NCBI GenBank assembly: GCA_019510195.1
Contig: JAEKKW010000056.1
Span: 1-35,308 of the forward strand
Direction of reading: 5' to 3'
DNA length: 35,308 nucleotides
From: Lysobacterales bacterium
GTDB taxonomy: Bacteria > Pseudomonadota > Gammaproteobacteria > Xanthomonadales > Xanthomonadaceae
The notes under the pieces were generated by a model. It searched no databases. It was not told the DNA's origin and was given only the letters and a program-made list of their open reading frames with translations. Position numbers and translations under genes: made by a program. Shown piece by piece: positions 12,116-18,838 of the stretch. Position 1 is the stretch's first letter, and the number at the start of each line of letters is the position of its first letter.

Positions 12116-12143
12116 AATATGGGCCCTGCCGGCGTCGTTGCAA
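12116..12143 (-). promoter_or_regulatory. possible promoter of the MBL-fold hydrolase gene
   Basis: TTGCAA (12138-12143) and CATATT (12116-12121), 16 bases apart on the minus strand, each match sigma-70 consensus at four of six positions. The -10 ends only six bases before the ATG at 12109, so the transcript would be leaderless or nearly so. Confidence 0.3.
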
Positions 12144-12226
12144 TGACGGCCATAACCCCGTTGTGGCGGCGTTTTGCCGGCAGCCGACTACACTATCCGC
12201 CCGTTTTCCTGCCCGGCCTGCCTGAA

Positions 12227-14113
12227 ATGACCTGGTCCCTCGACCTCGCCCGCAAGACCTATTCGATCCCGCACTGGTCGGACGGCTATTTCGACGTCGA
12301 TGCGCAGGGCCGGATCGCGGTGCGGCCCAAGGGTGCCGGCGGCCCCGAAGTCGCCCTGTCCGAGATGGTCGATCGTGCCCTGCAGAATGGCGCGCACCTG
12401 CCGCTGCTGGTGCGTTTCCCCGACATCCTCGGCGATCGCCTCGGCAAGCTGCAGGCGGCGTTCGCGCAGGCGCAGAAGGATTGGGGATACAGCGGCGGCT
12501 ATACCGCGGTCTATCCGATCAAGGTGAACCAGCATGCGGGCGTCGCCGGCACGCTGGCCTCGCACGCAGGCGATGGCTTCGGGCTGGAAGCCGGCAGCAA
12601 GCCGGAGCTGATGGCGGTGCTGGCGCTGTCGCGGCCGGGTGGCGTGATCGTCTGCAACGGCTACAAGGATCGCGAATACATCCGACTCGCGCTGATCGGG
12701 CGCAAGCTCGGGTTGCAGACTTTCATCGTGATCGAGAAGCCGTCCGAACTGAAACTCGTACTGGAGGAATCGCAGGCGCTGGGTGTGACGCCGGGTCTCG
12801 GCGTGCGCATGCGGCTGGCGTCGCTGGGCGCCGGCAAATGGCAGAACTCCGGTGGCGACAAGGCCAAGTTCGGCTTGAACCCGCGCCAGGTACTCGACCT
12901 GTGGAAACAGCTGCGCGATGCCGGCATCGGCGATTGCCTGCAGCTGCTGCATTTCCACATGGGTTCGCAGATTTCCAACGTCCGCGACATCGCCAACGGC
13001 ATGCGCGAGGCGACCCGCTATTTCATCGAACTGTCGAAGCTCGGTGCGAAGATCGATTACGTCGACGTCGGTGGTGGTCTCGGTGTCGATTACGAAGGCA
13101 CGCGTTCGCGCAGTTACAACTCGGTCAACTACGGGTTGCATCATTACGCATCGAGCATCGTCCAGCCGCTGGCGCAGGCGTGCGAGCAGAACGACTTGCC
13201 GCAGCCGCGCATCATCACCGAATGCGGTCGCGCGATGACCGCGCACCACGCCGTGCTGGTGGCCAACGTCTCGGAAGTGGAGCAGGCACCGGAAGGGCGG
13301 GTGCCGCCGCAGAACGACGACGAATCACAGCCGGTGCGCGACCTGCGTGAACTGCATGGTGAACTGGCGACACGCCCGGCGGTGGAGGTGTTCCACGAGG
13401 CCGCGCAGTCGCATGCCGAAGGCTTGAGCCTGTACGCACTCGGGCAGATCGACCTGGTCCAGCGCGCGCGCATCGACGACCTGTTCTACGCCATCGCGCA
13501 TGCAGTGAAATCGCGCCTGACCTACGACGAAAAGAGCCATCGCGACTTGCTCGATGAACTCAACGAGCGTCTGGTCGACAAATACTTCGTCAACTTCAGT
13601 GTGTTCGAGTCGATGCCCGACGTGTGGGCGATCGACCAGGTGTTCCCGATCGCGCCGATCGAACGTCTCGACGAAGCGCCGGTGCGGCGTGGCGTGATCT
13701 GCGACCTCACCTGCGATTCCGACGGCAAGATCGACACCTATGTCGAGAACGAGGATCTCGACACCTCGCTGCCGTTGCACGAATTGAAGCCGGGCGAGTC
13801 ATACCGGCTCGGTTTCTTCCTGATCGGCGCCTATCAGGAAATCCTCGGCGACATCCACAACCTGTTCGGCGATACCGACGCGGTGGAAGTGCGCGTCAAC
13901 GGCGGCGACTGCGTGATCACCCAGCAGCGTCGCGGCGACACCACCGATGTGATGCTCGACTACGTCGGCTACAAGCTCGACGACCTGCGTCGCATCTATC
14001 GCGCCCGCGTCGAAGCCGCGGATCTGTCGCCGGGCGAAAGCGAACGGTTGCAGCATGCGCTGGAATCCGGGTTGACTGCGTACACCTATCTGGATGACGC
14101 GCCGCTGGAGTGA
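12227..14113 (+). CDS. speA: biosynthetic arginine decarboxylase
   Basis: A 628-residue PLP enzyme converting arginine to agmatine, the first step of the alternative route to putrescine. Visible: the N-terminal YSIPHWSDGYFDV, the PLP lysine Lys99 in YPIKVNQ, the FGLEAGSKPEL strand, HFHMGSQISN, YVDVGGGLGVDYEGT (phosphate-binding Gly loop), ITECGRAMTAHH, and the catalytic cysteine loop CDLTCDSDGKI with Cys496 likely contributing to the partner subunit's site. Length fits the family (about 630-660). The ATG at 12227 is chosen because similarity starts at once after it; the frame upstream is non-conserved and overlaps the divergent promoter region. Confidence 0.95.
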   Translation: MTWSLDLARKTYSIPHWSDGYFDVDAQGRIAVRPKGAGGPEVALSEMVDRALQNGAHLPLLVRFPDILGDRLGKLQAAFAQAQKDWGYSGGYTAVYPIKVNQHAGVAGTLASHAGDGFGLEAGSKPELMAVLALSRPGGVIVCNGYKDREYIRLALIGRKLGLQTFIVIEKPSELKLVLEESQALGVTPGLGVRMRLASLGAGKWQNSGGDKAKFGLNPRQVLDLWKQLRDAGIGDCLQLLHFHMGSQISNVRDIANGMREATRYFIELSKLGAKIDYVDVGGGLGVDYEGTRSRSYNSVNYGLHHYASSIVQPLAQACEQNDLPQPRIITECGRAMTAHHAVLVANVSEVEQAPEGRVPPQNDDESQPVRDLRELHGELATRPAVEVFHEAAQSHAEGLSLYALGQIDLVQRARIDDLFYAIAHAVKSRLTYDEKSHRDLLDELNERLVDKYFVNFSVFESMPDVWAIDQVFPIAPIERLDEAPVRRGVICDLTCDSDGKIDTYVENEDLDTSLPLHELKPGESYRLGFFLIGAYQEILGDIHNLFGDTDAVEVRVNGGDCVITQQRRGDTTDVMLDYVGYKLDDLRRIYRARVEAADLSPGESERLQHALESGLTAYTYLDDAPLE

Positions 14114-14123
14114 TGCGGCGCGT

Positions 14124-14156
14124 CGATTCGGCGCACCGGTGACACGGCCTGGCGCA
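14124..14156 (+). promoter_or_regulatory. putative LytTR direct-repeat operator A
   Basis: Two 12-bp direct repeats, CGATTCGGCGCA (14124-14135) and CGGCCTGGCGCA (14145-14156), both fitting CGRYYYGGCGCR, start exactly 21 bases apart. The first begins 10 bases after the speA stop, upstream of the NTF2-like/kinase/regulator operon. The same arrangement recurs at 16577. A 21-base period is the spacing known for LytTR regulators such as YpdB and BtsR. Binding by the regulator encoded at 15833 is inferred. Confidence 0.6.
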
Positions 14157-14226
14157 TGACAGCCGAAAAGCCATGGTGTCGATGCATCGGCCGTGGACTA
14201 ATGCGGACTCCCAACGGAGAAGCCGC

Positions 14227-14754
14227 ATGACACCGATGAAGAACACCATCCTGGCAACGCTGATCATCCTCGCGTCTGGCCTGCAGCCGGCATTGGCAGG
14301 GCAGAACGCTCCTGCCGATGTCGCCGCGATCGACAAGGTGGTCGAACAGTTCCGTACATCGATCATCAACCGTGACAAACCAACGTTCACCAGCTTGTTC
14401 TTTTCCGACAAGCCGGAAGAAGTGACCTGGCAGTGGGTGATCGATGATGCAGGCCTGGCTCTTCTCCGCAAGCGCAATTCCGGCGCGCACAAATCCATTC
14501 ACGTTGCCGGCGAGAATTACCTGAGCTTCATCGATTCGTTGGTAAAGCCCGATGCCAGGCCGGCCGAGGAAAAGTTCCGGGACGTGAAAGTCGATACCGA
14601 CGGTGAAGTCGCTTCGGTGAATTTCGATTACTCGTATCTCGATGGCGGCAAGGAAACCAACTGGGGGCGCGAGATGTGGCAATTGGTGCGCACCGACGCC
14701 GGATGGAAGATCATCTCCATTATCTATTCGGTGCATCCGCCCATCGCCAAGTGA
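14227..14754 (+). CDS. secreted NTF2/SnoaL-like (DUF4440-type) protein
   Basis: A 175-residue exported protein. Residues 1-24 are a Sec signal peptide (MKNTILATLIILASG..PALA, likely cleaved before Gly25). The rest looks like an NTF2-like cone fold: a helix VAAIDKVVEQFRTSIINRDKPTFTSL-type opening, then strands ending in EMWQLVRTDAGWKIISIIYSV, the typical closing pair. Such domains bind small molecules or serve as enzymes; no catalytic residues can be assigned. The ATG at 14227 has GGAG nine bases upstream. Its stop overlaps a GTG start of the histidine kinase (GTGA at 14751-14754). Coupling to a sensor kinase suggests a periplasmic ligand-binding or sensory accessory role, which is inference. 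Confidence 0.7.
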   Translation: MTPMKNTILATLIILASGLQPALAGQNAPADVAAIDKVVEQFRTSIINRDKPTFTSLFFSDKPEEVTWQWVIDDAGLALLRKRNSGAHKSIHVAGENYLSFIDSLVKPDARPAEEKFRDVKVDTDGEVASVNFDYSYLDGGKETNWGREMWQLVRTDAGWKIISIIYSVHPPIAK

Positions 14755-15836
14755 CTGATTCGAACTCCCCGGCTGTTCCGATGGTGCCGCCGTCATGGCG
14801 GGTGGCGTGGCTGGCCGCCGTGCCGGTCGCGCTATGCCTGCTGGTGATGGCGTTGCCGACCGTCGGGCATAGCCATGCATTGGCGTATCGCATGTTGTAC
14901 CTGGTGGCCAATGCGCTGTGGGTGCCGGCATTGGTGCTGATGCAGCGTTGGTTGTGGCGTAATTCCATCACCTTGTGGCCGTCGATCCTGATCCTGCTCG
15001 CGGCGACTTATGCCATGTCGGTGGCGAACAGTGCGCTGGGCGTGGCGCTGGCGTGGGCCATGGGCTGGAAGATCCCGATGCCGTTCCAGTGGTGGCAGTT
15101 GCTGAGTGGGCTGGACGGTTGCTGGCTGGCGTTGATCGCCTTTTGCGCGGCACATGCGCTGGTCGGGCACTACGGCGCGTTGAAGGAGGAGCAGCGGCGC
15201 CATCGCGAAGCCGAGCTGGCCGCGCGCGAAGCCGAATTGAGAGCATTGCGTTACCAGCTGCATCCCCATTTCCTGTTCAATGCGCTCAACGGCGTGTCAT
15301 CGCTGGTCGGCGAAAATCGCGGCGACGAAGCGCGCACGATGATCGCCCAGTTGGGAACATTCCTGCGGGCGACGCTGGATGGGCGCAGGCATGAAGTCCC
15401 GTTGGCCGAGGAGTTGGCGCTGACGGAAACCTATTTGTCGATCGAGCAGGCGCGATTGGGCGAACGCTTGCAGGTGCAGTGGAATGTCGGCGCCGGCGTG
15501 CTGGATGCGGCGGTGCCGTCTCTGTTGCTGCAACCGCTGGTGGAGAACGCGATCCGTCATGGCATTGCCAGACGCAGCACGCCGGGGAAGATCGGGATCG
15601 ATATCCAGGCGCACGGCGCCCGCATGCACCTGCGGGTACGCAATGATGGCGTGGACGCGCCGGGAAACGGCCCCATGGATGGCGGCGCGCTGGGCCAATC
15701 GAACGTGCGTGAGCGGCTGGCGCGACTGTATCCGGAACGTCATCGCTTTTCCGCCATGGCGCTGGCATCCGGGGAATACGAGGTGAATATCGAAATTCCC
15801 ATGGAAAAAACCGCTGCAGCCATGGAGGCGACATGA
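14751..15836 (+). CDS. LytS/YehU-type sensor histidine kinase
   Basis: A 361-residue membrane sensor kinase. Four hydrophobic segments lie at roughly residues 16-38, 41-64, 71-104 and 113-140, with no large periplasmic domain. A charged coiled coil (about 142-165, KEEQRRHREAELAAREAE) leads to the His-kinase (PF06580-type) box LHPHFLFNALN with likely phospho-acceptor His173. The HATPase domain has its N-box PLVENAIRHG (Asn266) and the later GLSNVRERL-like GQSNVRERLARLY. The GTG at 14751 overlaps the upstream stop (GTGA); an ATG at 14781 is the alternative. Its own stop overlaps the regulator start (ATGA). With the regulator it forms a two-component pair; the signal is unknown, perhaps sensed in the membrane or through the secreted partner. 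Confidence 0.88.
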   Translation: MTDSNSPAVPMVPPSWRVAWLAAVPVALCLLVMALPTVGHSHALAYRMLYLVANALWVPALVLMQRWLWRNSITLWPSILILLAATYAMSVANSALGVALAWAMGWKIPMPFQWWQLLSGLDGCWLALIAFCAAHALVGHYGALKEEQRRHREAELAAREAELRALRYQLHPHFLFNALNGVSSLVGENRGDEARTMIAQLGTFLRATLDGRRHEVPLAEELALTETYLSIEQARLGERLQVQWNVGAGVLDAAVPSLLLQPLVENAIRHGIARRSTPGKIGIDIQAHGARMHLRVRNDGVDAPGNGPMDGGALGQSNVRERLARLYPERHRFSAMALASGEYEVNIEIPMEKTAAAMEAT

Positions 15837-16576
15837 TGCGCGTGCTGGTGGTCGATGACGAGCCATTGGCGCGCAATGGCGTGATCGCGCAATTGTCCGC
15901 TTTCGACGATGTCGAAGTGGTCGGGCAATGCGGCGACGGACAGTCGGCGATCGCGGGGATACGGCAGTTGCGTCCCGATGTGGTGGTGCTCGATGTGCAG
16001 ATGCCCGACTTGGATGGTCTCGACGTGCTGCGCTGTCTGCCGCTCGAAGAGCGTCCGCTGGCAATTCTGCTGACCGCGCACGAAACATTCGCCGTCTCCG
16101 CATTCGAACTGGATGCGATCGACTATCTGCTCAAGCCGCTGGACGACGAGCGTTTCTCCGAAGCGATTGCGCGCGCTCGGCGGCGGTTGGGCAAGTCGTC
16201 GCTTCCGACGGAGCACACACTGTGGCAGCCCATGCGGGAGCCGGAGCGCTTCGAGGTTCGCGTCGGACGTCGCGCCGTGTTCGTCCCGGTGGAAGATGTC
16301 GAATACCTGCAGGCGGATGGTGATTACGTCGCCTTGCACGTCGATGGCAAGCGTCACCTGATCCGCGAATCGTTGCAGCGATTGCAGGAACGATTGAATG
16401 CAGGGCATTTCCTGCGCATCCATCGCTCCGTGATCGTCCGACTCGATCGGGTGGCGGAAATGCGGTCGCTGTCGAATCGTGATGCGCTGGTTCGCCTGCA
16501 CGATGGCACGTTGCTGCGCGCAAGCCGCACCTACGTCGACACCCTGCGTGCGCGCCTGCGCCTGTCCCGGGCATGA
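15833..16576 (+). CDS. LytTR-family response regulator
   Basis: A 247-residue two-domain regulator. Residues 1-120 are a receiver domain with acidic pair DD at 8-9, phospho-acceptor Asp54 in VLDVQMPD, the Thr in LLTAHE and Lys in YLLKPLDD. Residues about 140-245 are a LytTR DNA-binding domain (VPVEDVEYLQADGDYV, the HFLRIHRSVIVRLDRV helix-strand unit). AlgR, AgrA, YpdB and BtsR are the known relatives; they bind paired direct repeats two helical turns apart. Exactly such repeats flank this operon, upstream of the NTF2-like gene and immediately after this gene's stop codon, before the hydrolase gene. Autoregulation and control of the downstream operon are therefore likely. Confidence 0.92.
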   Translation: MMRVLVVDDEPLARNGVIAQLSAFDDVEVVGQCGDGQSAIAGIRQLRPDVVVLDVQMPDLDGLDVLRCLPLEERPLAILLTAHETFAVSAFELDAIDYLLKPLDDERFSEAIARARRRLGKSSLPTEHTLWQPMREPERFEVRVGRRAVFVPVEDVEYLQADGDYVALHVDGKRHLIRESLQRLQERLNAGHFLRIHRSVIVRLDRVAEMRSLSNRDALVRLHDGTLLRASRTYVDTLRARLRLSRA

Positions 16577-16628
16577 CGATTCGGCGCATGCAGCACACGG
16601 TTTGGCGCGCCATCTCGGAATCAGCGCA
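16577..16628 (+). promoter_or_regulatory. putative LytTR direct-repeat operator B
   Basis: CGATTCGGCGCA (16577-16588) and CGGTTTGGCGCG (16598-16609) start exactly 21 bases apart, as in operator A. A third, weaker copy with core AATCAGCGCA ends at 16628. The block begins on the base after the regulator's stop codon. A possible -10 (TAGTCT, 16639-16644) lies downstream, so the third copy would overlap the -35 position, as in activated LytTR promoters. Across 31 bases, 23 match operator A, with mismatches confined to two spacer patches. Confidence 0.6.
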
Positions 16629-16676
16629 CATGAACGTTTAGTCTGCATGCCACGATCTGGCGGACGGGGGAGGCAT

Positions 16677-17702
16677 ATGGAGCGGCGTGGGGAAAGGCGC
16701 GGTGGTTGGTTGCATGCAGTCCGACGAGCAATCATCGGCTTGACTGCCGGATTGATACTCCTGGGATGCGCAGGCGCCACCTGGAATTACCTGGCGGTTC
16801 GCGACGCTCGTGTCGCCAACCCGCCCCCCGGGCATATCCATGTTGTGAATGGGCATGCCATGCACCTGTATTGCACGGGCGCGGGGACGCCGACGCTGGT
16901 GCTGGAATCCGGGCATGGCGACGACTTCACCGTCTGGGGCAAGGTGCAACCCGCCCTCTCCAAGGTGACTCGCACCTGCTCCTACGATCGCGCCGGATTT
17001 GGCTGGAGCGCGGAACAACCGGGCGCACGTGATGCAGCGAACATCGCCGACCAGTTGCATGCCCTGCTGGCGGCGGCCGGCATCACCACGCCTGTGGTGC
17101 TCGAAGGTCATTCTGCTGGCGGACTGTATGCGCGCATTTATGCTTCGAAGTTTCCAAAGAACGTCGCCGGTCTCGTATTCGTCGATGCCACGTCCCCGAA
17201 CCCACTGCCACAACCCCCTTTCAGCGTCGCGCTGGATCACCACGGCAATGTGGAATTCGCCTTCGTCAAAACGACCGTGGCATTGGGAATTGCCCGGTTG
17301 ATGGGGCAGTGCGATGCCGTGCCGCCGGGGCTGGAAGCGTATGCCGGCTGGATCAAGGCCAGTGCCTGCCACTACCCGCAGCTGGATGCGTACGTGCGCG
17401 AATCCCATGCCTTGGATGAATCGCTCAAGCAAGCCGCAGCTGTGCGTTCACTCGGAGACCTCCCCATTCTTGCTCTTTCACAGGATCCGAGGCGGGCGAT
17501 GCCAGTGTTCCTGCAAAACCGCGTCAGTCAGAAAGACTGGATCTGGTCCGTCACCAACCATGACAAGGATCAGGAGGCGTTTCTTCGGTTGTCCACGCGC
17601 ACTCGCCGCGTGATCGCTACCGACAGTGGACATTACATTCAATACGATCGACCCGATATCCTGATCGCGGAAACAACAACATTCATCGACAATCTGCGAT
17701 GA
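16677..17702 (+). CDS. alpha/beta-hydrolase, membrane-anchored or lipoprotein-like N-terminus
   Basis: A 341-residue alpha/beta-hydrolase. A basic N-terminus (RRGERRGG..RR) precedes a hydrophobic stretch ending in LILLGCAGA, which may be a membrane anchor or a non-standard lipobox with Cys as first mature residue, so the enzyme is probably periplasmic. The fold elements seen are LVLESGHGDDFTVW (oxyanion region), the YDRAGFGWS segment, the nucleophile Ser146 in GHSAGG and the catalytic His319 in SGHYIQYD. The substrate is unknown. The ATG at 16677 is preceded by a strong GGGGGAGG ribosome site. It lies directly downstream of putative LytTR operator B and its stop overlaps the acyltransferase start (ATGA). 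Confidence 0.88.
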   Translation: MERRGERRGGWLHAVRRAIIGLTAGLILLGCAGATWNYLAVRDARVANPPPGHIHVVNGHAMHLYCTGAGTPTLVLESGHGDDFTVWGKVQPALSKVTRTCSYDRAGFGWSAEQPGARDAANIADQLHALLAAAGITTPVVLEGHSAGGLYARIYASKFPKNVAGLVFVDATSPNPLPQPPFSVALDHHGNVEFAFVKTTVALGIARLMGQCDAVPPGLEAYAGWIKASACHYPQLDAYVRESHALDESLKQAAAVRSLGDLPILALSQDPRRAMPVFLQNRVSQKDWIWSVTNHDKDQEAFLRLSTRTRRVIATDSGHYIQYDRPDILIAETTTFIDNLR

Positions 17703-18838
17703 CTGCCCACATGCAACGGATGCCCGGCCTAGACCTGTTGCGCGCCATCGCCATCCTCTGGGTGATGCTGTTCCACAGTTTCATCGTCGGTGGGCTCGGC
17801 GACGATTGGAGCTGGCTGTCGAAATGCGGCTGGATGGGCGTCGACATTTTCTTCGTGCTCAGCGGTTACCTGATCGGTGGCCAGGTATTGCAGCGCCTGC
17901 GTGATCACGGACGGCTCGGCTTCGGCGATTTCTACCTGCGCCGCGCCTTGCGCATCCTGCCGGCGTTCTGGCTGGTGCTGGCGATCTACGCGCTGTTCCC
18001 GTCGTGGCGCGAAGTCGAGGGGATGGAGCCATGGTGGAAGTTCGCGGCATTCATATACAACCTTGATGTCGATTACAGCGCGCACGCAGCGTTCTCGCAC
18101 GCATGGTCGTTGTGCGTGGAGGAACATTTCTACCTGGTGTTCCCGTTGCTGGCGATGTGGTTGTTCCGCCGCAATTCGATGTTGCTGACCATCGCGTTGA
18201 TCGCATTCGTGCTGCTGGGCGGCATCGCGCTGCGTAGTGCGATCTGGCTGCATGACGATGCCCTGAAGCCGGATCGCAACTGGTTCATCGAGGATCTCTA
18301 CTACCCGACCTGGTGCCGTCTCGATGGCCTGCTGGTGGGCGTCGCATTGGCAGCGATGAACGTGTTCCGTCCGCAGTGGTGGAAGCACCTGCGCAGGCAT
18401 GCGGATTTTGCCTTGTTGACCGGACTCGTCGGCGTCGTTGCGTCATTCTGGCTGCACGCGCAGCGCGGTGGCCTGCTCGCCAACAGCATCGGTTGGTCGG
18501 TGTTGTCGATTTCCTTCGGATTCCTGGTATTCGCAGCGGCCGAGCGCGACGGCTGGATCGGACGCCGGCATGTTCCTGGTGCGAGCTGGATCGCCGCGAT
18601 TTCCTACAGCCTGTATCTCAGCCACAAGCTGGTGATGCATGGTGTCGAGTCGGCGATCGATGGTCGCGTGCATGGCATCGTCGCATTCGCGCTGTACGCC
18701 ATTGCGATTCTCGCGGCAGGTGCAATGTTGCACTACGCGGTGGAGCGGCCGGGGTTGCGCTTGCGGGAGCGGATGCTGCGACAGCGCGACCCGGCAGGCA
18801 TCATCACGCCCTCGATCAGTGCCGGAAACAGCCAATGA
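17699..18838 (+). CDS. acyltransferase 3 (OafA/YrhL-type) membrane protein
   Basis: A 379-residue membrane acyltransferase with about ten hydrophobic segments. The family signature is at the start: GLDLLRAIAILWVMLFH, with the His used for catalysis, then WMGVDIFFVLSGYLIGG and the FYLRRALRILPAF motif. HAWSLCVEEHFYLVFPLL is the conserved SLSVEEQFY-like segment. Such enzymes move acyl groups across the inner membrane onto sugars, lipopolysaccharide, peptidoglycan or exported small molecules; the acceptor is unknown. Its ATG overlaps the hydrolase stop, so the two are co-translated. A hydrolase paired with an acyltransferase may add and remove the same ester, which is inference. Confidence 0.9.
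   Translation: MTAHMQRMPGLDLLRAIAILWVMLFHSFIVGGLGDDWSWLSKCGWMGVDIFFVLSGYLIGGQVLQRLRDHGRLGFGDFYLRRALRILPAFWLVLAIYALFPSWREVEGMEPWWKFAAFIYNLDVDYSAHAAFSHAWSLCVEEHFYLVFPLLAMWLFRRNSMLLTIALIAFVLLGGIALRSAIWLHDDALKPDRNWFIEDLYYPTWCRLDGLLVGVALAAMNVFRPQWWKHLRRHADFALLTGLVGVVASFWLHAQRGGLLANSIGWSVLSISFGFLVFAAAERDGWIGRRHVPGASWIAAISYSLYLSHKLVMHGVESAIDGRVHGIVAFALYAIAILAAGAMLHYAVERPGLRLRERMLRQRDPAGIITPSISAGNSQ

What the first reader, a model, noticed from the sequence alone, without database searches (positions are those of the whole stretch)
14227..18838. Secreted NTF2-like protein, sensor, regulator, hydrolase and acyltransferase as one envelope system
Four of five successive genes are joined by 4-nt overlaps (NTF2-like/kinase GTGA, kinase/regulator ATGA, hydrolase/acyltransferase ATGA), and the two halves share the operator described above. 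The kinase has only short loops between its membrane segments, so a secreted NTF2-like partner could supply the ligand-binding function. The output pair, a probably periplasmic serine hydrolase and a membrane acyltransferase, could remove and add the same acyl group. I know of no described system with this composition. The functional proposal is inference.
Basis: partly seen in the sequence, partly recalled or inferred. Interest (0 to 1): 0.6.

Follow-up and report, generated by a model that had tools for sequence, protein, structure and literature searches.

The report
Membrane sensor switch with private operator
This stretch encodes a small bacterial sensing circuit: a membrane sensor, often paired with a secreted helper protein, appears to switch on itself and a nearby envelope enzyme through matching DNA binding sites, and related bacteria keep the circuit but swap the enzyme.

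Summary
In detail: five genes, three 4-nt overlaps and a shared operator. The operator is a LytTR-type direct repeat, period 21. I compared 42 related kinase loci. Kinase and regulator are the stable core; the secreted NTF2-like gene accompanies them in 20 of 42. The output is swappable: 39 of 42 have an acyltransferase or serine hydrolase nearby (25 PF00144, 13 acyltransferase-3, 2 alpha/beta hydrolase; this window has both of the last two). Of 30 scored outputs not fused to the operon, 25 have their own operator and one lies behind an NTF2 gene that has one; 0 of 6 fused outputs do. A -10 element lies 29 bp behind the operator in 20 of 25 output promoters. The acyltransferase is an old speA neighbour; close relatives of the hydrolase occur in 2 of 395 genomes, both beside this kinase. 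Kinase Gly97, probably near the outer face, is in 20 of 20 loci with NTF2 and 0 of 22 without. That favours NTF2 as co-sensor but rests on about four events. Acyl editing has no specific support.

The parts
14123..14156 (+). Operator 1: LytTR-type direct repeat, period 21, ahead of the NTF2-kinase-regulator operon
   Evidence: PWM 30.1 bits; an operator leads the operon in 33 of 42 related loci
14197..14202 (+). Probable -10 element (ACTAAT), 40 bp after operator 1
   Evidence: NNYAAT at exactly this offset in 12 of 32 operon promoters; shuffle maximum 3 (pattern chosen)
14227..14754 (+). Secreted NTF2-like (SnoaL/AtzH-like fold) protein, 175 aa
   Evidence: Below Pfam cut-offs by sequence; AF2 pLDDT 74.8; Foldseek to AtzH and NTF2-like structures E about 2e-7, probability 1.00
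14751..15836 (+). LytS-type histidine kinase with four membrane helices and no periplasmic domain, 361 aa
   Evidence: PF06580 E 3.2e-24; model helices 15-37, 41-70, 75-103, 114-169
15833..16576 (+). Response regulator, receiver + LytTR DNA-binding domain, 247 aa
   Evidence: PF00072 E 9.3e-22, PF04397 E 7.6e-22
16576..16609 (+). Operator 2, at the regulator stop codon, ahead of the hydrolase
   Evidence: PWM 32.0 bits; 32.5 bits with a PWM trained only on operon-leading sites
16639..16644 (+). Probable -10 element (TAGTCT), 29 bp after operator 2
   Evidence: TAnnnT at exactly this offset in 20 of 25 output promoters; shuffle maximum 3 (pattern chosen)
16677..17702 (+). Membrane-anchored, probably periplasmic alpha/beta hydrolase, GHSAGG nucleophile elbow
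   Evidence: PF00561 E 5.6e-16; one hydrophobic helix 14-32; 69% identical relative in G572 beside the same kinase
17699..18838 (+). Acyltransferase-3 membrane protein, 379 aa
   Evidence: PF01757 E 1.1e-26; neighbour of speA in 18 of 21 sensor-less loci read
12119..14113 (+). speA (arginine decarboxylase): flanking gene that marks the place of the sensor cassette, not part of the circuit
   Evidence: Pfam arginine decarboxylase domains; speA-acyltransferase neighbourhood without the sensor

Best explanation
A compact, self-amplifying LytS/LytTR two-component circuit with its own local operator. A signal at the outer face of the membrane reaches the loop-less four-helix kinase, most likely with help from the secreted NTF2-like protein. 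The kinase phosphorylates the LytTR regulator, which binds 21-bp-period direct repeats at two promoters. One raises the NTF2-kinase-regulator operon (positive feedback); the other switches on an exported or membrane enzyme that acts on the envelope or on a molecule there. In this window the second promoter drives a periplasmic serine hydrolase and, through a 4-nt overlap, an acyltransferase. Across relatives the sensor is kept and the enzyme is exchanged.
SHOWN by computation: gene order, folds and families, operator-like repeats, promoter spacing, operators recurring ahead of unrelated output genes.
INFERRED: regulator binding, activation, phosphotransfer, NTF2 as co-sensor, periplasmic place of the hydrolase. 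Signal and substrate are unknown.
For: (1) An operator leads the operon in 33 of 42 loci (19 of 20 with NTF2); four of the other nine carry it between two tandem kinase genes. (2) Of 30 scored outputs not fused to the regulator gene, 25 have their own operator and one (G072) lies behind an NTF2 gene that has one; 0 of 6 fused outputs do. (3) A PWM built only from operon-leading sites finds a site above the 99.9% null level ahead of 20 of 40 output genes, fused ones included; 0.04 expected. (4) TAnnnT exactly 29 bp behind the operator in 20 of 25 output promoters, which suits an activator; published LytTR-system repeats are mostly 12 bp apart and 4-11 bp above the -35 in S. mutans (PMC6193735, passages). 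(5) Exact matches to the genus pattern lie only at this locus in eight genomes. (6) Close relatives of the hydrolase in 2 of 395 genomes, both beside this kinase with an operator, in different gene order. (7) NTF2 distances track the kinase (rho 0.78; partial 0.76 given the regulator), not speA (0.17), in 11 loci; kinase Gly97 in 20 of 20 NTF2+ and 0 of 22 NTF2- loci; 6 of 110 sensor columns but 0 of 204 kinase columns differ by more than 0.6.
Against: No binding or expression data; activation is inferred from spacing. NTF2 is missing from 22 of 42 loci; in G072 it sits behind the regulator, ahead of the hydrolase, under its own operator, as an output would; in G740 it is 4 kb from the kinase; 20 of the 29 genomes with NTF2 have it away from this kinase. 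The Gly97 link rests on about 4 independent changes, 2 on well-supported branches, too few for a sign test. NTF2 lies next to the kinase's 5' end, so local exchange could give the same co-divergence. Outer-side versus inner-side sensor columns do not differ significantly (5 of 60 v 1 of 50, p 0.22). At a looser cut (0.5) kinase-domain columns (3 of 204) and regulator columns (5 of 247) also appear. G563, G062b, G062a and G600 have non-fused outputs without an operator; G563 and G062b lack one ahead of the operon too. The main PWM was refined on the same loci.
Confidence: 0.6

Rival explanations
1. The NTF2-like protein is only another regulated product (an exported enzyme or binding protein that acts with the hydrolase or acyltransferase), and the kinase senses alone through its membrane helices.
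For: Kinase without NTF2 in 22 of 42 loci; NTF2 ahead of the PF00144 hydrolase under its own operator in G072; NTF2 relatives away from this kinase in 20 of 29 genomes; NTF2 folds are often enzymes (general knowledge).
Against: Sensor-region residues go with NTF2 presence (Gly97 20/20 v 0/22); NTF2 follows the kinase more closely than the regulator; NTF2 lies directly ahead of the kinase in 18 of 20 loci (not in G072 and G740), overlapping it by 4 nt here.
Confidence: 0.35
2. A detoxification or resistance module: the kinase senses an envelope-active compound made by competitors and induces a hydrolase that destroys it or an acyltransferase that shields the envelope.
For: Patchy distribution (39 of 395 family genomes; 4 of 17 in the genus); output enzymes of unrelated folds under one sensor; a toxin-antitoxin-like pair at the same chromosomal place in a relative; PF00144 includes class C beta-lactamases (general knowledge).
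Against: No substrate known; PF00144 and alpha/beta hydrolases also do housekeeping work. I did not survey the loci for transporters or resistance genes. It does not contradict the circuit, only names its purpose.
Confidence: 0.3
3. One reading: hydrolase and acyltransferase remove and add the same acyl group on an envelope glycan or lipid.
For: 4-nt overlap and probably one promoter for both genes in this window; both predicted at the envelope.
Against: This pair occurs in 1 of 42 loci. In G572 the hydrolase is beside the kinase and no acyltransferase relative was found in the 18 kb read.
Confidence: 0.12
4. Chance neighbourhood: the acyltransferase belongs to the old speA locus and the sensor merely landed in between.
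For: speA-acyltransferase neighbourhood without the sensor in 18 of 21 loci read.
Against: The acyltransferase also flanks the sensor where no speA was found in 19 kb (G090, G138), and has its own operator there and in G744, G732 and G638; no operator-like site above 12 bits directly ahead of the gene at 21 sensor-less acyltransferase loci.
Confidence: 0.06

Closest known systems
LytS/LytTR two-component systems (BtsS/BtsR, YpdA/YpdB; PMC5552118 passages, PMC10653868 title and start of abstract)
   Same: PF06580-type kinase plus receiver-LytTR regulator; a regulator-binding motif at a target gene's promoter.
   Different: BtsS is described as a 7-transmembrane receptor with a GAF domain; this kinase has four helices and no GAF hit. 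The BtsR and YpdB targets are transport proteins; here envelope enzymes. The regulator misses the BtsR model cut-off (172 v 246 bits).
LytTR Regulatory Systems, LRS (HdrRM, BrsRM; PMC6193735, passages)
   Same: Direct repeats mostly 12 bp apart just above the promoter; positive feedback on the own operon; repeats also at effector genes.
   Different: The LRS partner is a membrane inhibitor protein ('histidine kinase' occurs 0 times in that main text); here a histidine kinase is present.
AlgZ(FimS)/AlgR of Pseudomonas (recalled; PMC4064291 seen in a search listing only)
   Same: Short-looped membrane kinase with a LytTR regulator (recalled).
   Different: AlgR is a global regulator (recalled); here exact matches to the genus operator pattern were found only at the locus in eight genomes.
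Kinases with a separate periplasmic binding partner (LuxP/LuxQ, TorT/TorS, ChvE/VirA; recalled, no call)
   Same: A soluble exported protein encoded beside the kinase could bring the signal.
   Different: Those kinases have sizeable periplasmic domains (recalled); this one has none, and the partner is NTF2-like. No interaction shown.
ECF41 sigma factors with a SnoaL-like domain (PMC8999054, passages)
   Same: An NTF2/SnoaL-like domain used in signalling.
   Different: There it is a fused C-terminal extension of the sigma factor; here it is a separate exported protein.

Membership tests
LytS/LytTR two-component system | Kinase of family PF06580 with several membrane helices | tested here: met
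   PF06580 E 3.2e-24; four helices in the AF2 model
LytS/LytTR two-component system | Regulator with receiver and LytTR domain | tested here: met
   PF00072 and PF04397 above cut-off
LytS/LytTR two-component system | Operator of two direct repeats about two helical turns apart | tested here: met
   Period 21 (20 in G051 and G584)
LytS/LytTR two-component system | Regulator binds these repeats | not testable with these tools
   Needs a protein-DNA binding assay
BtsS/BtsR (pyruvate sensing) | Regulator reaches the BtsR equivalog model | tested here: not met
   172.1 bits against a cut-off of 246
BtsS/BtsR (pyruvate sensing) | GAF domain in the kinase | tested here: not met
   No GAF hit in Pfam up to E 0.1
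LytTR Regulatory System (LRS) | Membrane inhibitor protein as the regulator's partner, no kinase | tested here: not met
   The partner gene is a histidine kinase (PF06580) with conserved PHFLFN and ENAI.HG boxes
NTF2-like / SnoaL superfamily | NTF2 fold | tested here: met
   AF2 model and Foldseek matches, probability 1.00; P0001 itself is below Pfam cut-offs, the G091 relative is above two of them, the Massilia one matches none
Kinase with periplasmic binding partner | Partner gene linked to the kinase gene across relatives | tested here: met
   20 of 42 loci, both Massilia among them; 22 of 42 lack it
Kinase with periplasmic binding partner | Partner and sensor region co-vary | tested here: inconclusive
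   Supportive but only about 4 independent changes
Kinase with periplasmic binding partner | Physical contact and ligand binding | not testable with these tools
   No complex prediction or binding assay available
Acyltransferase-3 | PF01757 over most of the protein | tested here: met
   Residues 9-343, E 1.1e-26
Alpha/beta hydrolase | PF00561 with nucleophile elbow | tested here: met
   E 5.6e-16; GHSAGG also in the G572 relative

The most novel reading that the evidence does not exclude
A secreted NTF2-like protein is the ligand-binding co-sensor of a kinase that has no periplasmic domain of its own: it docks on the outer ends of membrane helices 2-4 (His42/Tyr46, Asn93/Gly97, Cys124 region). 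The resulting sensor cassette moves between genomes and recruits unrelated envelope hydrolases or acyltransferases by giving each a copy of one private operator.
Probability: 0.38. Interest if true: 0.68.

Novelty: new variant of a known kind. Interest (0 to 1): 0.55.

Why it matters
If right, it gives a clear case of how a two-component sensor stays fixed while its output enzyme is exchanged: the newcomer either joins the operon directly or has a copy of the operator with the same promoter spacing. It also offers a testable answer to how a kinase without a sensory domain could perceive a signal, namely through a separate secreted NTF2-like subunit, and it names residues to mutate. It proposes a regulator, an operator and a likely activator promoter for several envelope hydrolases and acyltransferases of this family (which includes Pseudoxanthomonas) and an operator for the same operon in Massilia.

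Tried and rejected
Rejected: operator as chance similarity (held-out test, genome pattern, sensor-less loci); the count inside the window alone would not have shown it. Rejected: hydrolase as a random neighbour (2 of 2 close relatives in 395 genomes lie beside this kinase). Rejected: kinase, regulator, NTF2, acyltransferase and speA diverging as one unit; NTF2 and kinase distances hardly follow speA (0.17 and 0.21), while acyltransferase and speA follow each other (0.65).

Paper searches with LytTR plus Xanthomonas and acyltransferase, Lysobacter, Stenotrophomonas, SnoaL, serine hydrolase or Xanthomonadaceae names, NTF2-like plus kinase, and acyltransferase plus arginine decarboxylase showed no description of this system in their listings; two searches listed 12 of 151 and 12 of 998 papers, and most subscription papers are not in that library.

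How counts were made. The 42 loci are the 41 (46 kinase hits in 39 genomes, tandem copies merged), minus G156's second copy (L233, probably a contaminant contig: its operator is identical to that of G051 and G584), plus two Massilia loci. Searches scored at most 5 first-look candidates per genome, so their tallies are lower bounds. Output = relative of ABH, AT3 or PF00144 within 4.6 kb; PF00144 was checked by Pfam for 9 of the 25 loci counted and for G138's uncounted copy, the rest by tblastn similarity. G138's PF00144 gene (no operator), G740's second acyltransferase and the acyltransferase behind the hydrolase in G000 are not counted as separate outputs in the 30 and 6. The 25 output promoters include the NTF2 gene of G072. 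One of two tandem kinase copies per locus was used. The training sites were picked with the PWM refined on all loci. The highest of its 2,677 null windows scored 29.0; two strong sites listed by that call (G666, G717) may themselves be real operators.

Full report
WHAT IS THERE. Pfam gives PF06580 for the kinase, PF00072 and PF04397 (LytTR) for the regulator, PF00561 for the hydrolase and PF01757 for the acyltransferase. The 175-aa first protein is below all Pfam cut-offs, but its predicted structure (AF2, pLDDT 74.8, three-sequence alignment) matches AtzH and other NTF2-like structures (Foldseek E about 2e-7). It has a signal-peptide-like start. The kinase model (pLDDT 83.9) has helices 15-37, 41-70, 75-103 and 114-169, hence no periplasmic domain.

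THE OPERATOR. The two shared stretches are direct repeats of period 21, that is 9-bp cores separated by 12 bp, the usual arrangement in LytTR systems (PMC6193735, passages read). One lies ahead of the NTF2 gene, the other begins at the regulator stop codon ahead of the hydrolase. Inside the window alone the number of such sites is not above chance. In eight genomes of the genus, searched with a pattern written from the genus's own sites, exact matches occur only at this locus: two in the window's genome, one in each of the three other genomes with the kinase, none in four without an ortholog. The reversed control pattern gives none; one further match with three mismatches is in G158.

RELATIVES. 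A family-wide search found kinase orthologs in 39 of 395 genomes at E <= 1e-60 (up to five candidates per genome scored). In the earlier 149-genome search the scores fall from 317 to 169 bits between orthologs and other kinases. In the genus, 4 of 17 genomes have it; a class-wide search of 369 genomes gave only the own genome. Two Massilia genomes, which belong to another family (recalled), also have it. I read 42 loci: 41 minus one probable contaminant, plus the two Massilia. A further Pseudoxanthomonas record duplicates G752.

GENE CONTENT. The NTF2-like gene accompanies the kinase in 20 of 42 loci: directly ahead of it in 18, behind the regulator in G072, about 4 kb ahead in G740. An acyltransferase-3 is nearby in 13, a PF00144 serine hydrolase in 25, and this alpha/beta hydrolase in 2 (here and G572). 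The window is the only locus with both the acyltransferase and this hydrolase; G138 has an acyltransferase and, without operator, a PF00144 gene. Three loci have none of these (G570 and the two Massilia; one Massilia has an S41 peptidase next). On the kinase tree the output type changes about 8 times (labelled before the PF00144 genes of five tandem loci were recognised) and NTF2 presence 3-4 times.

WHERE THE OUTPUTS CAME FROM. The acyltransferase is an old neighbour of speA. Of 21 loci fetched for it (G046 and the 20), 18 have speA and the acyltransferase in one neighbourhood without the sensor; the other three (G118, G048, G015) show no speA in the stretch read. In G046, same genus, the place between speA and the acyltransferase holds a zeta-toxin-like gene and a Phd-like antitoxin instead. 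So the sensor cassette probably entered next to a resident acyltransferase, though loss from an ancestral arrangement is not excluded. In G106, G156, G158, G051, G584 and G740 the acyltransferase follows the regulator within 30 nt. In G000 a hydrolase with its own operator lies in between. Close relatives of that hydrolase exist in only 2 of 395 genomes, G000 and G572 (69% identical, next best 37%), and both lie beside this kinase with an operator, in different gene order.

THE OPERATOR RULE. With a PWM refined on these loci, an operator leads the operon in 33 of 42; four of the other nine carry it between two tandem kinase genes. Of 30 scored outputs not fused to the regulator gene, 25 have their own operator and one (G072) lies behind an NTF2 gene that has one; of 6 fused ones, none. 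Non-fused outputs without one: G563, G062b, G062a, G600. Because this PWM was refined on the same loci, I also built one only from operon-leading sites. It places 20 of 40 output genes above the 99.9% level of 2,677 null windows, where 0.04 would be expected (alpha/beta hydrolase 2 of 2, acyltransferase 4 of 14, PF00144 14 of 24; that run included L131, G156's second copy and fused outputs). Twenty of 25 distinct output promoters have TAnnnT exactly 29 bp behind the operator; 12 of 32 operon promoters have NNYAAT exactly 40 bp behind it, one helical turn further; shuffles reach at most 3 (I chose both patterns after seeing the sequences). At 40 loci that hold NTF2 or acyltransferase away from the kinase (a few of these genomes have the kinase elsewhere), the highest score is 18.4 (spacing 22, between speA and acyltransferase in L112), 15.2 at spacing 21, and none above 12 bits lies directly ahead of NTF2 or acyltransferase. 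A third strong site in G666 and G717 precedes, in G666, a small lipoprotein-like gene.

IS NTF2 A CO-SENSOR? For: in 11 speA-linked loci kinase and NTF2 distances correlate (rho 0.78) about as strongly as kinase and regulator (0.81), while neither follows speA much (0.21 and 0.17); given the regulator, the kinase-NTF2 partial correlation is 0.76. Over 20 loci kinase-NTF2 is 0.59 and regulator-NTF2 0.27; NTF2 follows the sensor region (0.54) slightly more than the kinase domain (0.49), the LytTR domain (0.36) and the receiver (0.18). Kinase Gly97 is present in 20 of 20 NTF2+ and 0 of 22 NTF2- loci, Asn93 in 100% and 14%, Cys124 in 100% and 27%. Six of 110 sensor columns, but 0 of 204 kinase columns, differ by more than 0.6. 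In the four-helix model with an inward N-terminus these residues lie near the outer face; the orientation is inferred. Against: only about four independent NTF2 changes exist, two on well-supported branches (Gly97 goes the same way in both), so no sign test can be significant; sensor regions evolve fast; the outer-face enrichment within the sensor region is not significant (p 0.22); at a cut of 0.5 three kinase-domain and five regulator columns also appear; neighbours can be exchanged together; 22 loci do without NTF2, and 20 of 29 genomes with an NTF2 relative have it away from this kinase (neighbours of 12 of 19 such loci printed).

VERDICT. I read this as a self-amplifying LytS/LytTR circuit with a private operator and a swappable envelope enzyme: a new variant of a known kind. 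The circuit is well supported by comparison, though no binding or expression was measured. NTF2 as co-sensor is plausible (about 0.4). The acyl-editing proposal is not specifically supported.

Noticed in passing
L091:7574-8587 (G046, between speA and the acyltransferase): A zeta-toxin-like P-loop gene (below the Pfam cut-off) and a Phd/YefM-type antitoxin occupy the place where the sensor cassette sits in other genomes of the genus.
   Followed up: partly
L242:5171-5204 and L247:4885-4918: A third strong operator (30-33 bits) in two loci that lack NTF2; in L242 it precedes a small lipoprotein-like gene without Pfam match, possibly another exported partner.
   Followed up: partly
L061, L062, L240, L243, L245: Five loci carry two tandem copies of the kinase with one regulator and a PF00144 hydrolase relative; in four of them the operator lies between the two kinase genes.
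   Followed up: partly
L092:4044-6628 (G071): An NTF2-like relative lies directly ahead of an OmpR-type regulator and what looks like a kinase gene, a second link of this family to a two-component system.
   Followed up: no
L233 (G156:C33): A second, very different copy of the whole speA-sensor-acyltransferase stretch in one draft genome; its operator is identical to that of G051 and G584, so probably a contaminant contig.
   Followed up: partly
L239:9299-12281 (G740): NTF2 is separated from the kinase by about 4 kb holding a second acyltransferase-3 and an MmgE/PrpD-family gene.
   Followed up: partly
L112:8182 (G061): An operator-like site with spacing 22 (18.4 bits) between speA and the acyltransferase where no kinase was found in the stretch read; perhaps a remnant.
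   Followed up: no
L065, L255 (G051, G584): The operator has period 20 instead of 21, one base shorter in the spacer, and is identical in both loci.
   Followed up: partly
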